64,000 nucleotides of DNA. It comes from Agromyces allii (GTDB lineage Bacteria > Actinomycetota > Actinomycetes > Actinomycetales > Microbacteriaceae). This document shows, in pieces, positions 35,464 to 44,087 of the stretch (position 1 is the stretch's first letter; every line of letters starts with the position of its first letter). The notes under the pieces were generated by a model. It did no database searches and was not told the origin of the DNA. It saw only the letters and a list, made by a program, of their open reading frames with translations. The stretch covers positions 124,001 through 188,000 of the forward strand of contig NZ_WBIN01000012.1 in the NCBI RefSeq assembly GCF_009749385.1, given 5' to 3'. The position numbers and the translations under genes were made by a program.

Positions 35464-37284
35464 CTATCCGCGGGCGGGATGTATCCGTATGGGAGCCGTG
35501 GCAATCACCGCACCCAAAGCAACAGTGAGTAGCCCCCTACCCGACGCAGTTACGAGACGTCCGACATCATCGGAGGTCGTCCGGGTGCCGATACGCGTAG
35601 CTTCCTGCGCGAACTGCTCGAAAGACGCACCAGGTGCGATGTAGACCAGGCCGAAGAACCGGAAGGCTTCTTCTGAGAGCTGCACCCAGACGTACGCGAG
35701 GAAGAGCAGGGCAAGCCCCACGGCAACGAACGTGATGACTGCGCGCGCAGCCCAAAGGACGATGAGGCGAGTCGTTGTGAGCGCCCCGTTTCCAACCCGC
35801 CGCAAAGTTAGACCACGTTGGGCCGCATTCAGATCGATCGGCTGGTGACTCCATGTCATCCGCACAGTCGATTCGCTCTCTAGTTCTTTGCCACGGAGGA
35901 GCCTGCCGAGCGTCCAGGCCACCGAACTGTTGCGGCGTAAGGAGAGACCAGTGAGTGCAGCGCAAAGAAGCCAAATGAGCCCCAGCAGGTATTGGTCCTG
36001 GTGGTAGTCGAACAGCAGCGCACCGGCAGCCAAGACGAGTGGCACGATGCAGAACACGGCCCAACTTCGACTTGGCGCGAGTAGCGCACGGCGGATTGGT
36101 TCGTCATCCATCCTGACGACATACGCGAGGCTCAGACTCGGAACAATGAGTAGGAGCGACATTGCTGGGTCGAGGTGCTCCTGGATGTGGGTCAGGAACG
36201 CGAGTGGACTCAATTGAGCGAGCGCGCCTAGCGCGAGCAGGAGAGTTATCGCCCAAGTCCAGAGCAAGATCGGGGCCATTACGCGTTCCGGATCAGGGGT
36301 CAGAACAGCATGCACGTACCGGATTCGTGGCTGCTGACCCGGGCTTCCTGGGTGGTAGTAGATATCGCGCTGAGGACTCCGGCGATTCCAGTACGAGTAC
36401 TCGGGGATTGGTTTAGTGGGATGCCAGTACTGCATCAAGCCTGAACTCAGAAAAGTACCCCCGGGTGCGAGGACGCGGATGTGTTCGCGTACCGCACTTC
36501 GCACATCCGAAACGCGTAGAGACAGCACCCACGAGTCCTGGGGCACAGCGGAATATGTCTCGCGACGGCCAGCTACATCTCCGATGTGTTCGAGAAGGGT
36601 GTCTTGCTCGCCTTCTAGCCGGCGGTACTTGAGAATCTCAGGGCCATCTGTAACCGGATACCACAAAGTCGGGATGTAGCTTGCGAGGAAATACTGTTCG
36701 ACGAAATCGAAAAGGGTCTCGTCGGATTCAATTATGTTCCAGGCAGCCTTGGCGTCGGCCCCTCCCGTGAGTACGCATCTGGGGAGGATCTTGTTGTCGT
36801 GGATATACCAATCCGTGATGTCATCAACGTCGACGAATTCATTTGAGATCTCGTACCCAAGGTCGGCCACGGCATGCAGCTGGGCGTTCGAGATCTTCGA
36901 GACCTTCGAGTTCGGTGCGCGTACCTTCGCTGCGATGGCGAGGCGTGCGAGCAACGATTGTTCGCGGCTCGTAAACGACGACAGTGCGTGACCATCACCA
37001 TCGCGTAAGTCGAAGTCGAGGAGCAGGCCTTTCTGGAATACTGCAACTGGAAGTGGCACCTCTTGGAGATCACTGAGTTTGTGTTTCTGAATTCTGCTCG
37101 CGAGCTCGCGGGTGTCGATATCGAGGCTCACTCGACGGACACGATGCCTGCTGTCTTGGATCTCAATTGTCTCGACACGTCGTGCGACCCAGGTCCAGTC
37201 CTCGATTAGATCGAGGTAGAACATTCCCATCCGTTTGCGAAGACCATTGACTGGTTTACCGTGGATGAGCTCCTTATGTTTCAA
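35464..37284 (-). CDS. hypothetical polytopic membrane protein
   Basis: 606 residues with no recognised family. A soluble N-terminal region of about 340 residues contains DLIEDWTWVARRVETIEI and RRVSLDIDTRELASRI. About six hydrophobic helices follow (for example LLWTWAITLLLALGALAQL, AVFCIVPLVLAAGALLF, AVITFVAVGLALLFLAYVWV). The longest frame starts with TTG at 37284, overlapping the stop of the 77-codon frame as TTGA; no Shine-Dalgarno precedes it, so the start is uncertain. A signalling or surface function is possible; nothing specific can be claimed. Confidence 0.6.
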   Translation of the reverse strand: MKHKELIHGKPVNGLRKRMGMFYLDLIEDWTWVARRVETIEIQDSRHRVRRVSLDIDTRELASRIQKHKLSDLQEVPLPVAVFQKGLLLDFDLRDGDGHALSSFTSREQSLLARLAIAAKVRAPNSKVSKISNAQLHAVADLGYEISNEFVDVDDITDWYIHDNKILPRCVLTGGADAKAAWNIIESDETLFDFVEQYFLASYIPTLWYPVTDGPEILKYRRLEGEQDTLLEHIGDVAGRRETYSAVPQDSWVLSLRVSDVRSAVREHIRVLAPGGTFLSSGLMQYWHPTKPIPEYSYWNRRSPQRDIYYHPGSPGQQPRIRYVHAVLTPDPERVMAPILLWTWAITLLLALGALAQLSPLAFLTHIQEHLDPAMSLLLIVPSLSLAYVVRMDDEPIRRALLAPSRSWAVFCIVPLVLAAGALLFDYHQDQYLLGLIWLLCAALTGLSLRRNSSVAWTLGRLLRGKELESESTVRMTWSHQPIDLNAAQRGLTLRRVGNGALTTTRLIVLWAARAVITFVAVGLALLFLAYVWVQLSEEAFRFFGLVYIAPGASFEQFAQEATRIGTRTTSDDVGRLVTASGRGLLTVALGAVIATAPIRIHPARG

Positions 37285-37841: not shown

Positions 37842-39002
37842 TCAGCCTATGCGGAAGCGCGGACGGACACGCCGGTCTCTATCGAACGATCCCAGTATGT
37901 TCCATACGGCTCTTCCGGTCCTGCGCGCATGGGACGCCTCAACGAAGGCCTTCCCGATGTCGCGCACCGCTTCTACGGTGCCGGGTACAGCCCCGACAAC
38001 CGCGCCGGTGATGAGATTGGGATCGCTGGGGTTGAGCAGAGCCGCAACACCCGCTGATCCGGCCGCTCCCAGCGCTGTAATTGTGAGGCCGTCTCCAGCC
38101 GCGCGGAACGCGCTCAGCGCCGGCGATCGGCGCATCGATCTCGTCAAGTGTTCGGTGCTTCGAGTGAGTTCATCGCGCACGATGGCGGCAGCCTCTGCTC
38201 TTGCTTGTTCCGTGTCGTTAAGCAGATTGACCGCGCTCAGTGCTGAGCGTAAATGCCCTCGCCATTCGACGAACTCATCCGCCGAGGAACGCAACTGGAC
38301 AACAGATTGAAGAGTCCGTCCTTGGAGACCGGGCAGCTCAATCCGAGCGAGTGTGGACAGCTCCGACACCCGGCCATCAAGAATCGTGTGCCCGCCTAGA
38401 AGCGATCTGTAGGCCGTTTCATGATCAGCTGTCTGTGCAATTGGGGTCGCCGTTCCTTCCATGGCAGCGAGGACATTGCCGCTCATTTGCCATTCAGCGG
38501 AACTGCGCTCCGTGCCTCGGCCGAGAACCTGATCCCAAAGCCCAAACTTAGCTAGTCCCCTGTGCTTTGCAGTGAACAGAATCGATCCATCCTCGATCAA
38601 TGGACGGTTGTACATGAGCCATTCAAGATCGCGGCGAACCTCGCTTCGCACATAAACGTGGTCGCGTTGCGCGTCTTCCATACCGACGATGTTGAATGGC
38701 TCGAGCCGGTGGGAGTCCTCAACAACGGAATCGACATACAACAGCATTTTCGCCGCGGTGCGATAGTTGAAGGCAGCTGGCTCCATGGTTTCGCCCCAGA
38801 TAGGCCGGAGGCTTCCCTCCGGCAGCGACGGCAGGTGACCGCCCTCGTAGAGCCTTTGAAGATCATTGCCCTCTTCGTAAAATGCCACGAGGTGACTGAA
38901 CGGCGCTGAAGTGATGGCTTTGATCAGTTCGCGATCGAGGCGTTGCCCCCACCAGGTTTCGATATCGGCGATGACGCGAATAGCTTCGGGCTGACCACTC
39001 AT
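37842..39002 (-). CDS. hypothetical protein, 386 aa
   Basis: It starts at ATG 39002 without a clear ribosome-binding site. The N-terminal half is globular and acidic (IADIETWWGQRLDRELIKAI, FNIVGMEDAQRDHVYVRSEV). A helical region with many Arg/Glu follows. Two short Gly/Ala-rich hydrophobic stretches near the C terminus (ITALGAAGSAGVAALL, ITGAVVGAVPGTVEAV) could insert in a membrane. No family recognised. It lies at the edge of the accessory region. Confidence 0.6.
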   Translation of the reverse strand: MSGQPEAIRVIADIETWWGQRLDRELIKAITSAPFSHLVAFYEEGNDLQRLYEGGHLPSLPEGSLRPIWGETMEPAAFNYRTAAKMLLYVDSVVEDSHRLEPFNIVGMEDAQRDHVYVRSEVRRDLEWLMYNRPLIEDGSILFTAKHRGLAKFGLWDQVLGRGTERSSAEWQMSGNVLAAMEGTATPIAQTADHETAYRSLLGGHTILDGRVSELSTLARIELPGLQGRTLQSVVQLRSSADEFVEWRGHLRSALSAVNLLNDTEQARAEAAAIVRDELTRSTEHLTRSMRRSPALSAFRAAGDGLTITALGAAGSAGVAALLNPSDPNLITGAVVGAVPGTVEAVRDIGKAFVEASHARRTGRAVWNILGSFDRDRRVRPRFRIG

Positions 39003-39846: not shown

Positions 39847-39951
39847 TAGAATGGAACTCCTGTCTGGCCCCCGGTCAGAGCGGTCACGCCGTGCATCACG
39901 CGTGGTCCGAGGCTTGAAACCTCCGGCACTCTCACAAGACACCGGAGGTTT
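39847..39951 (+). promoter_or_regulatory. leader with -10 box, mini-ORF and SD-sequestering hairpin
   Basis: A TAGAAT -10-like box lies at 39847-39852. Downstream, a GTG-started mini-ORF (39891-39917) encodes MHHAWSEA. Its stop codon touches the left arm AAACCTCCGG (39917-39926) of a 10-bp perfect stem. The right arm CCGGAGGTTT (39942-39951) contains the GGAGG ribosome-binding site of the exporter gene. GAGG at 39908-39911 could pair instead with CCTC at 39920-39923. This is the layout of ribosome-mediated translational attenuation. Confidence 0.5.
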
Positions 39952-39955
39952 TCCC

Positions 39956-41473
39956 ATGTCCTCACGCGCCCGGATCCGACCCGATCGCAGCCCGAACGAT
40001 CTCAGCCCGACCGACGTCGGCCCGACCGAGGTCGGCCGCAAGGTCCGCATCCCGAATCGTTGGCTGGGCCTCGTCGTGCTCTCGCTGACGCAGCTCATGG
40101 TCGTGCTCGACGGCACGATCGTGAACATCGCGCTGCCCGACGCGCAGATCGAGCTCGGCATGTCCGACGGACTGCGCCAGTGGGTGGTCACCGCGTACTC
40201 GCTCGCGTTCGGCGCGCTGCTGCTGCTCGGTGGCCGCGTCGCCGACTACTGGGGGCGCAAGCGCACGCTGCTCGTCGGCATGGTCGGCTTCGGTGCGGCC
40301 TCGCTCTACGGCGGCATCGCGCAGTCGGCCGCCGAGCTCATCGTCGCGCGCGGACTGCAGGGCGCGTTCGCCGCGCTGCTCGCACCCGCCGCGCTCGCGC
40401 TGCTGACCGTGACGTTCCCGTCGGGGCGCGACCGCAACGTGGCCTTCGCCGTGTTCGGCACGATCGCGGGCGCCGGGGCGGCGGTCGGACTCGTGCTGGG
40501 CGGGGTGCTCACCGAGTTCGTCGACTGGCGCTGGTGCCTGCTCGTGAACCTCGTGTTCGTCGTGATCGGGTTCGTCGGCGGTCTGTTCACGCTCGGCGAG
40601 AGCCGCGCGGGCGGCGAGAACCGCTTCGACCTCGCGGGCGCGGTCACGGTGACGCTCGGTCTCGGTTCGCTCGTCTACGGCTTCAGCCTCGCCGAGGGCG
40701 GCTGGGGCCAGCTGTCGACCATCGGGTTCCTCGCGCTCGGCGTTGTGCTGCTCGCGCTCTTCGTGTGGGTCGAGTCGAAGGTCGCGCAGCCGCTGCTGCC
40801 GTTGCGCGTGGTCGCCGACCGCATCCGCGGCGGCGCGTTCCTGATCCAGGCGATCGCGGGCAGCGTCATGATCGGCTCGACGCTCTACCTGACGTTCCAC
40901 CTGCAGATCGTGCTCGGGATGTCGCCGCTCGGCGCCGGGCTCGCGAGCCTGCCGCTGCCGATCGCCATCACCCTGACGGCACCGGTCGTCACGCGTCTGC
41001 TCGCCCGCTTCGGACCGCGCCCGCTGCTCATCGGCGGACCGCTCGTCGTCGCGGCCGGACTCCTGCTGCTCAGCGGCATCACGGCCGGCGGCGTCTACGC
41101 GGCCGAGGTGCTGCCGGGCATGGTCGTCATGGGCGTCGGCATGGCGTCGGTGTTCGTGCCGCTGCAGAACCTGGCCCTGTTCGGCATCGCCCCGCACGAC
41201 GCGGGTGCGGCGTCGGCGACGGCGAACTCGGCGATGCAGATCGGCGGCTCGATCGGCGTCTCGGTGTTCACAGCGGTCTACGCGTCGGTCTTCGCGGCGA
41301 GCGGGCTCGCAGGTGCCGAGGCGCCGACCGCGATGACCGACGGCTACGGGGCGACGTTCGTCGCCGCCGCGATCGGCATGGTCGCGGCATCCGTCATCGC
41401 GATCGCCCTCGTGCGCGGCGCGCGCCTCCGCGAGCTCACGTACGAGACGGGCGCCGTCGCCGCGGTGCACTGA
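39956..41473 (+). CDS. MFS transporter, DHA2 (14-TM) drug exporter family
   Basis: A 505-residue proton-driven exporter with about 14 helices. Motif A-like GGRVADYWGRKRTLLVG follows helix 2, and VVLDGTIVNIALPDAQIEL is the usual DHA2 helix 1 signature. The ATG at 39956 has GGAGG 7 bases upstream; the in-frame extension from 39851 overlaps the probable promoter and is rejected. The ribosome-binding site lies inside a hairpin, so translation is probably inducible, consistent with an antibiotic-efflux role. Substrate unknown. Confidence 0.9.
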   Translation: MSSRARIRPDRSPNDLSPTDVGPTEVGRKVRIPNRWLGLVVLSLTQLMVVLDGTIVNIALPDAQIELGMSDGLRQWVVTAYSLAFGALLLLGGRVADYWGRKRTLLVGMVGFGAASLYGGIAQSAAELIVARGLQGAFAALLAPAALALLTVTFPSGRDRNVAFAVFGTIAGAGAAVGLVLGGVLTEFVDWRWCLLVNLVFVVIGFVGGLFTLGESRAGGENRFDLAGAVTVTLGLGSLVYGFSLAEGGWGQLSTIGFLALGVVLLALFVWVESKVAQPLLPLRVVADRIRGGAFLIQAIAGSVMIGSTLYLTFHLQIVLGMSPLGAGLASLPLPIAITLTAPVVTRLLARFGPRPLLIGGPLVVAAGLLLLSGITAGGVYAAEVLPGMVVMGVGMASVFVPLQNLALFGIAPHDAGAASATANSAMQIGGSIGVSVFTAVYASVFAASGLAGAEAPTAMTDGYGATFVAAAIGMVAASVIAIALVRGARLRELTYETGAVAAVH

Positions 41474-42347: not shown

Positions 42348-44087
42348 GTGACCACTTCACCGCGCCGCCGCTGGTTCGGCCTCGTCTTCATCAGCATCGC
42401 CGTGTCGCTCATCATCGTCGACTCGACGATCGTGAACGTCGCGATCCCGGCGATCGTCGACGACCTCGGCATCACCTCGACGCAGGTGCAGTGGGTGCAG
42501 GAGTCGTACACGCTCGTCTTCGCGGCGCTGCTGCTCGTGTTCGGCACGCTGGCCGACCGGTTCGGGCGACGCCGGATACTGCTCATCGGCGTCGTGATCT
42601 TCGCGCTGTCGTCGGTGGCGGCCGCCCTCGCGACCACCGGCGAGCTGCTGATCCTGGCGCGGCTCGTGCAGGGCGTCGGCGGCGCGATGATCCTGCCGAC
42701 CACGCTGTCGCTCATCAACGCGACCTTCCGCGGCCGGGAGCGGGGCATCGCGTTCGCGGTCTGGGGCTCGACGATCGGCGGCATGGCGGCCATCGGCCCG
42801 TTGCTCGGCGGGTGGCTGACGACGGACTTCTCGTGGCGCTGGGCGTTCGGCATCAACATCCCGTTCGCGATCGTCATCATCATCGGCGCGCTGCTCACGA
42901 TCGACGAGTCGCGCGCGCCGGGCGAGCCGAGGCGCATCGACGTCGTCGGGGCGATCCTCTCGGTGATCACGAGCGGGTTCCTCGTGTTCGCGCTCATCGA
43001 GGGCCGCACCTACGGGTGGTGGCTGGCGGAGGACGGCGTCGCGTTCGGCGACTGGACGTGGCCGTTGACGATCTCGCCGATCCCGTTCGCGTTCGCGATC
43101 GCCGCGCTCGGCCTCGTCTCGTTCGTGCTGTGGGGGCGGAGGCGCATGCGCCTCGGCAAGTCGACGATGCTGCCGTTCGCGCTCTTCGCCATTCCGTCGT
43201 TCCGCAACGGCAACGTCGCCGCGCTCATCGTCTCGCTCGGCGAGTTCGGCATCATCCTCTCGCTGCCGCTCTGGCTGCAGTTCGTGCTCGGCTTCGACGC
43301 CCTGCAGACCGGGTTCGTGCTGCTCGCGCTCGCCGTGGGCTCGTTCGGCGCGAGCGGCTTCGCCGGCGCGATGTCGGGGCGCCTGCCGGCCGTGTTCATC
43401 GTGCGGCTCGGCATCGCGCTCGAGATCGTCGGCGTCGTGTGGGTGGGCCTCGTCATCGCTCCGGATGCCACGTGGCAGTGGTTGCTGCCGGCGCTCTTCG
43501 TGTACGGGTTCGGCGTGGGCCTCGCGACCGCCCAGCTCACGGGCGTGGTGCTGCAGGACGTGCCCGTGGCCGACAGCGGCGCCGGATCGGGAACGCAGTC
43601 GACCTCGCGCCAGCTCGGCTCGGCGCTCGGCATCGCGATCCTCGGCACGGTGCTCTTCACGACGACCGCGAACGTGCTCGACGCGAGCCTCGACGAGCGA
43701 GGCCTGCCCGAGGCGCAGCGCGAGCAGACGGTCTCGGCCGTGGTCGACAGCGCTGGCGCGGCGATCGCCGGCCTAGAGGCGAACCCGAAGACCGCCGAGA
43801 TCGGCGCCGACGCCGCCGAGGCGTTCAGCACGGGCACGCGCTATGCGGCGTTCTCGGCCGCCGGATTCCTCATCGTCGGCTTCTTCGCGACGCTCTCGCT
43901 CGGTTCGGGCCGTCGCGACGAGCATGACGGCCAGGGCCAGGGCCAGGGCCAGGGCCAGGGCCAGGGCGAGGGCGAGGGCGAGGGCGGGACGGCGGATGCC
44001 GCGGCGGACCGCCCGGCTTCAGCCGACGCCGCGCCCGGAGACGTCGCGCCCGCGGGCACCGCAGACGCAGCCGAGCGCGAATCCTGA
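42348..44087 (+). CDS. MFS transporter, DHA2 family, with Gly/Gln/Glu tail
   Basis: A 579-residue 14-TM exporter (IIVDSTIVNVAIPAIVDDLG, LADRFGRRRILLIG, QGVGGAMILPTTLSLINATF). The GTG start has AGGG 8 bases upstream. After the last helix (about residue 520) comes a low-complexity cytoplasmic tail of GQ and GE dipeptides, then an Ala/Asp/Pro-rich end, unlike typical family members. The tail is encoded by a hexamer repeat. Substrate unknown. Confidence 0.88.
   Translation: MTTSPRRRWFGLVFISIAVSLIIVDSTIVNVAIPAIVDDLGITSTQVQWVQESYTLVFAALLLVFGTLADRFGRRRILLIGVVIFALSSVAAALATTGELLILARLVQGVGGAMILPTTLSLINATFRGRERGIAFAVWGSTIGGMAAIGPLLGGWLTTDFSWRWAFGINIPFAIVIIIGALLTIDESRAPGEPRRIDVVGAILSVITSGFLVFALIEGRTYGWWLAEDGVAFGDWTWPLTISPIPFAFAIAALGLVSFVLWGRRRMRLGKSTMLPFALFAIPSFRNGNVAALIVSLGEFGIILSLPLWLQFVLGFDALQTGFVLLALAVGSFGASGFAGAMSGRLPAVFIVRLGIALEIVGVVWVGLVIAPDATWQWLLPALFVYGFGVGLATAQLTGVVLQDVPVADSGAGSGTQSTSRQLGSALGIAILGTVLFTTTANVLDASLDERGLPEAQREQTVSAVVDSAGAAIAGLEANPKTAEIGADAAEAFSTGTRYAAFSAAGFLIVGFFATLSLGSGRRDEHDGQGQGQGQGQGQGEGEGEGGTADAAADRPASADAAPGDVAPAGTADAAERES
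43931..43984 (+). repeat. hexanucleotide tandem repeat in exporter tail
   Basis: Six copies of CCAGGG followed by three of CGAGGG, in frame, encode alternating Gly-Gln and Gly-Glu. Unit loss or gain would change tail length without a frameshift. Confidence 0.9.

What the first reader, a model, noticed from the sequence alone, without database searches (positions are those of the whole stretch)
39847..39958. Candidate ribosome-mediated attenuator before a DHA2 exporter
A mini-ORF encoding MHHAWSEA ends exactly where a 10-bp stem begins. The other arm of the stem carries the exporter's GGAGG site. A ribosome stalled on the mini-ORF would cover the left arm and free the ribosome-binding site, the logic of erm-type antibiotic-induced leaders. 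A competing short pairing (GAGG/CCTC) is also possible.
Basis: partly seen in the sequence, partly recalled or inferred. Interest (0 to 1): 0.6.

Follow-up and report, generated by a model that had tools for sequence, protein, structure and literature searches.

The report
Riboswitch-like leader of drug exporter genes
Upstream of a drug-exporter gene lies a conserved, undescribed folded RNA that hides the ribosome-binding site and probably opens it when it senses a toxic compound; it is shared by many actinobacteria, and the proposed antibiotic-stalled mini-gene plays no part.

Summary
The stem that hides the exporter's GGAGG site is real. The mini-ORF is accidental: its start region is the least conserved part of the leader, its TGA stop is lost in over half of the relatives, and the closest relative lacks its start.

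What is conserved is a ~95-nt structured RNA that begins at a promoter and ends at the start codon. It has hairpins P1, P2 and P3 and a probable 3-bp closing stem P0, forming a compact four-way junction. Covariation is strong (219 double-change cells against 73.5 in shuffles). The strand CCUCCRG pairs either into P3/P0 (site free) or with CYGGAGG (site hidden). Rfam 15 has no match.

The RNA occurs in 58 of 400 Microbacteriaceae species and sporadically in Streptomyces, Cellulomonas, Nocardioides and others. It nearly always precedes one clade of DHA2 exporters, whose sister clade carries a divergent TetR gene instead. Exceptions precede an ABM-like protein with an AlkA-like glycosylase, and a Qnr/AlbG-like pentapeptide-repeat protein.

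Best reading: a new candidate riboswitch class, a translational ON switch for toxin defence, ligand unknown. No experiment supports ligand binding yet.

The parts
39847..39852 (+). Predicted -10 promoter element TAGAAT; transcription start expected near 39859
   Evidence: A TAnnnT hexamer lies 9 or 10 nt upstream of P1 in 58 of 67 relatives. No full sigma-70 consensus match. Start site not measured.
39860..39862 (+). P0 5' strand CUG, pairs with 39924-39926 (CRG)
   Evidence: 97.4% of cells pair over 67 sequences, mostly invariant, with U-G/U-A/C-G at the middle pair. Moderate support only.
39863..39879 (+). P1 hairpin: 39863-39869 pairs with 39873-39879
   Evidence: All 7 pairs have compensatory changes, 95.5% of cells paired.
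39882..39908 (+). P2 hairpin of variable length: 39882-39889 pairs with 39900-39907 (or, shifted by one at its base, with 39908 and a bulged U39906)
   Evidence: 5 of 8 pairs have compensatory changes; the GG/UC base is invariant. The mini-ORF lies across its loop and 3' arm.
39909..39923 (+). P3 hairpin GAGG-CUUGAAA-CCUC (the freeing alternative)
   Evidence: 100% of cells paired over 67 sequences, with A-U, G-U and G-C at the second pair.
39917..39951 (+). Sequestering stem: 39917-39926 with 39942-39951, mutually exclusive with P3 and P0
   Evidence: 88.3% of cells paired; G39925-C39943 becomes A-U in 14 sequences; AAGCCUCC/GGAGGCU double change in L092. Median probability that the site is unpaired is about 0.001 by default and 0.29 with P3 forced.
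39944..39948 (+). Exporter ribosome-binding site GGAGG, 7 nt before the ATG
   Evidence: Read directly.
39956..41473 (+). DHA2-family MFS exporter, 505 aa, LmrA/EfpA-like
   Evidence: NCBIfam LmrA 2.2e-64 and EmrB 1.1e-63, both below the curated cut-off; Pfam MFS_1; EfpA structures 1e-61.

Best explanation
The leader is a cis-acting structured RNA, best read as a new riboswitch class working as a translational ON switch. By default the strand AAACCUCCGG pairs with CCGGAGGUUU and hides the exporter's ribosome-binding site. In the other state the same strand is held in P3 (CCUC) and probably P0 (CGG) of a compact four-way junction formed with P1 and P2, and the site is free. A toxic compound that stabilises this junction would switch on its own exporter. 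The aptamer is transcribed first and P3 forms before the 3' arm of the hiding stem exists, so the decision is probably made while the RNA is being made. Shown here by computation: structure, covariation, mutually exclusive pairings, gene association. Inferred: direct ligand binding, ON direction, co-transcriptional timing. Ligand unknown; associated genes point to a toxic, possibly DNA- or gyrase-targeting, aromatic compound.
For: Covariation: 219 double-change cells against 73.5 +/- 9.8 in shuffles, 89.8% of cells paired against 22-56% when partners are slid; the P0-P3 form pairs at 93.2%. Promoter at a fixed 9-10 nt before P1. Distribution: 58/400 Microbacteriaceae, 14/16 in one genus, 6/247 Streptomyces (one weak hit discounted). 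Downstream gene nearly always a DHA2 exporter, 50-86% identical to the window's. RNA-linked exporters form one clade except for one row inside it, 2 label changes against 13 in shuffles; the sister clade carries a divergent TetR gene in 6 loci. Other controlled genes also fit defence: ABM-like protein with AlkA-like glycosylase, and a Qnr/AlbG-like pentapeptide-repeat protein. Energetics and growing-chain folding.
Against: No ligand, no binding data, no expression data. P3 is only 4 bp and hardly varies; P0 has no double changes in the alignment. In one subtype (GATCCGGGCTGG, e.g. L048, L056, L062) the hiding stem is weak, so the platform differs or works less well there. Some Streptomyces lack the 5' CUG. 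A protein or small RNA could act on the same structure.
Confidence: 0.65

Rival explanations
1. The RNA is a binding site for a protein (or small RNA) that stabilises one of the two folds, so the sensor is not the RNA itself.
For: Structured leaders can be protein targets; nothing here shows direct ligand binding.
Against: Invariant letters cluster in junctions and in the P3 loop rather than in one hairpin loop. It occurs in several families but is sparse and patchy, and no regulator gene was seen to travel with it. The sister exporters use a TetR gene where the RNA is absent.
Confidence: 0.17
2. The same RNA controls transcription termination or RNA stability rather than translation initiation.
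For: The hiding stem is GC-rich and in some relatives is followed by 6-7 U (L010, L049).
Against: In the window only UUUU follows and no terminator is called. The 3' arm is itself the ribosome-binding site at the right spacing, and many relatives have UUUCUC or similar.
Confidence: 0.1
3. The leader only damps translation or acts as a thermosensor, without ligand.
For: The hiding stem alone would reduce translation.
Against: Does not explain covarying P1 and P2 and invariant junction letters far from the ribosome-binding site.
Confidence: 0.06
4. Ribosome-mediated (erm-type) attenuation by the MHHAWSEA mini-ORF.
For: An ORF ends at the stem in this genome.
Against: Start lost in the closest relative L032; stop letter varies; 50 of 67 relatives have no such frame; peptide not conserved.
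Confidence: 0.02

Closest known systems
yjdF (azaaromatic) riboswitch, RF01764
   Same: Leader RNA that turns ON a defence gene by freeing the ribosome-binding site; suspected toxic planar ligands; a PadR regulator gene takes its place when absent (PMC4793209), as TetR does here.
   Different: Different sequence, structure, phylum and controlled genes; no Rfam match here.
Guanidine riboswitches (ykkC, ykkC-III and others)
   Same: RNA sensors of a toxic compound upstream of exporters, some in Actinobacteria.
   Different: Those control mainly SMR and other guanidine genes; no cmscan match; different architecture.
erm-type and related antibiotic attenuators
   Same: Stem hides the ribosome-binding site of a resistance gene.
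   Different: They need a translated leader ORF; tested and not met here.
LmrA/TcmA/EfpA-like exporters under TetR-family repressors
   Same: Same exporter family and presumed purpose.
   Different: Sensor is a DNA-binding protein, as suggested by the divergent TetR genes of the sister clade.

Membership tests
Riboswitch (general kind) | Conserved structured domain in a 5' untranslated region with covarying pairs | tested here: met
   promoter position.
Riboswitch (general kind) | Expression platform with mutually exclusive pairings that include the ribosome-binding site | tested here: met
   P3/P0 against hiding stem. Computational only; weak in the GATCCGGGCTGG subtype.
Riboswitch (general kind) | Direct, selective binding of a ligand by the RNA alone | not testable with these tools
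   Needs in-line probing or SHAPE.
Riboswitch (general kind) | Ligand-dependent change of gene expression | not testable with these tools
   Needs reporter assays.
Any family of Rfam 15 (including yjdF, guanidine, T-box, TPP, SAM, FMN) | Match to the covariance model | tested here: not met
   No match at gathering score, nor at E up to 1 in six relatives; only two chance miRNA hits (E 0.29 and 0.69) in the window leader.
erm-type ribosome-mediated attenuator | Conserved translated leader ORF | tested here: not met
   start absent in L032.
erm-type ribosome-mediated attenuator | Induction by ribosome-targeting antibiotics | not testable with these tools
   Not assayed.
DHA2 (14-TMS) drug:H+ antiporter exporters | Sequence match to the family models | tested here: inconclusive
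   MFS_1 above cut-off; EmrB 215.7 bits, just under the curated 230.2; EfpA, QacA-type and EmrB structures are the best relatives.

The most novel reading that the evidence does not exclude
A new riboswitch class that directly senses a natural DNA- or gyrase-attacking aromatic antibiotic and switches on its exporter, and in some genomes a gyrase-protecting pentapeptide-repeat protein, an ABM-type oxygenase or a DNA glycosylase.
Probability: 0.25. Interest if true: 0.88.

Novelty: new variant of a known kind. Interest (0 to 1): 0.68.

Why it matters
Riboswitches that sense toxins and turn on exporters are few, and a drug-sensing one is rarer still. This RNA is compact, well supported by covariation and linked to multidrug-type exporters in plant- and soil-associated actinobacteria, including Streptomyces. 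Its absence from Rfam, and the swap with TetR regulators in sister exporters, make it a ready test case for direct drug sensing by RNA; finding the ligand would also reveal what these exporters expel.

Tried and rejected
Mini-ORF attenuator: rejected by comparison. Intrinsic terminator: not called. Known Rfam family: none. Mobile spread: no plasmid match and no exact core pattern in viral contigs. In-frame longer exporter start at 39851: overlaps the predicted -10, so not expected in the transcript. Weak model hits L168-L170 and L189 (33 bits or less) were inspected and set aside as chance. Papers: no description of this motif found, but the 224-motif survey (gkx699) is not held, supplements could not be read, and the searches of the main texts of the 26- and 50-genome surveys found no mention. 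SbcD- and LigD-like genes 60-70 nt after the exporter in single genomes (named by eye) were not counted as evidence.

Full report
Observation. The stem folds far better than shuffles. The window lies in a Microbacteriaceae-type genome; the closest exporter found is 86% identical, in Agromyces salentinus.

The mini-ORF does not survive comparison. Relatives were collected by DNA similarity in the same family and by exporter protein similarity. The letters of the mini-ORF start (39891-39899) are among the least conserved of the leader, while flanking letters are invariant. Only 17 of 67 relatives have any start-to-stop frame ending there, with unrelated peptides, and the letter that makes the TGA varies. 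In L032 the GTG is already gone.

What is conserved is an RNA fold. An alignment of 45 leaders gave P1, P2 and the hiding stem with strong covariation. A model built from it and its hits gave 67 sequences: 219 cells with changes on both sides against 73.5 in shuffles, and the signal collapses when partners are slid by 1-3 columns. The alternative form with P3 pairs at 92.6%. A three-pair closing stem P0 (CUG at the very 5' end with CRG) pairs in 97.4% of cells, though with little variation. RNAalifold finds P1, P2 and the hiding stem independently and suggests a one-base shift at the base of P2 with an invariant bulged U. P0, P1, P2 and P3 together form a compact four-way junction. This junction is a model, not an observation.

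Switch logic. The strand CCUCCRG is shared: it lies either in P3 and P0, or in the hiding stem. R39925 covaries with Y39943 (G-C to A-U in 14 sequences), and L092 carries a double change at two pairs of the same stem. By energy the hiding form is preferred: -33.7 against about -22 kcal/mol for the simple evaluated structures in the window. The median probability that the ribosome-binding site is unpaired is about 0.001, rising to 0.29 when P3 is forced. As the chain grows, P3 is present until about 39941 and is replaced once 39942-39948 are made. This fits a ligand that must act during transcription, but that is inference. A subtype with GATCCGGGCTGG (L048, L056, L062 and others) has a weak hiding stem and is unexplained.

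Promoter. A TAnnnT hexamer lies 9 or 10 nt before P1 in 58 of 67 sequences, so the RNA should begin right at the fold.

Distribution. 58 of 400 Microbacteriaceae species have it, 14 of 16 in one genus, 6 of 247 Streptomyces, 7 of 81 in another family of the order, and about 1% phylum-wide (three clear hits, while hits at or below 26 bits look like chance). By protein search it also precedes exporters in Cellulomonas, Oerskovia, Cellulosimicrobium, Nocardioides, Nakamurella and Pseudarthrobacter. There is one copy in the window's own genome.

Controlled genes. Nearly always a DHA2 exporter, 50-86% identical to the window's. In three species of one genus (the one that includes G172) it precedes a 254-255-aa protein with a weak ABM match (Pfam E 0.022; structure match E 0.004), followed by an AlkA-like DNA glycosylase (E 9e-9 to AlkA structures; no Pfam match). 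A 79% identical glycosylase gene directly follows the exporter in Curtobacterium L054 and L072. In one species it precedes a pentapeptide-repeat protein whose best solved relatives are a McbG-like protein (2XT2, AlbG by my recollection), MfpA and Qnr proteins. Such proteins protect gyrase from poisons such as albicidin, microcin B17 and quinolones (PMC7897471, abstract). These few exceptions are the only pointer to the ligand, and it is a weak one.

Regulatory swap. In a tree of 50 exporters the RNA label needs 2 changes against 13 in shuffles; the sister clade includes 6 loci with a divergent TetR-type gene and no RNA, five of which were confirmed by Pfam. The yjdF RNA shows the same pattern with PadR (PMC4793209).

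Known or new. No Rfam 15 family matches, and no paper found describes it, within the limits of an open-access library without supplements. I file it as a candidate new riboswitch class: the kind is known, the class is not. It is not an erm-type attenuator.

Noticed in passing
window 1-39200 against 39261-64000: Sharp step in base composition (GC about 0.63 left, 0.71 right) just upstream of the 152-aa ORF beside the exporter (its C-terminal end is conserved beside the exporter in L032): probably the end of an acquired island.
   Followed up: partly
window 35464-37284 and 37842-39002, - strand: Two proteins (606 and 386 aa) in the lowest-GC part with no match in NCBIfam, Pfam or PADLOC.
   Followed up: partly
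window 42348-44087, + strand: A second DHA2 exporter without this leader, separated from the first by a FetB-like gene on the other strand; in L032 a second DHA2 gene with a similar N terminus follows the first directly.
   Followed up: no
L196, near 1440-1640, - strand: G172 has a second, divergent copy of the RNA before a 51% identical exporter, besides the copy before the ABM-like gene.
   Followed up: partly
L048, L056, L062, L066, L178, L181: Subtype with GATCCGGGCTGGAAACCC and a short or weak hiding stem; how it hides the ribosome-binding site is unclear.
   Followed up: partly
L047, after the exporter: An alpha/beta-hydrolase-like gene (named by eye) overlaps the exporter stop, suggesting a drug-modifying partner in one Herbiconiux.
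   Followed up: no
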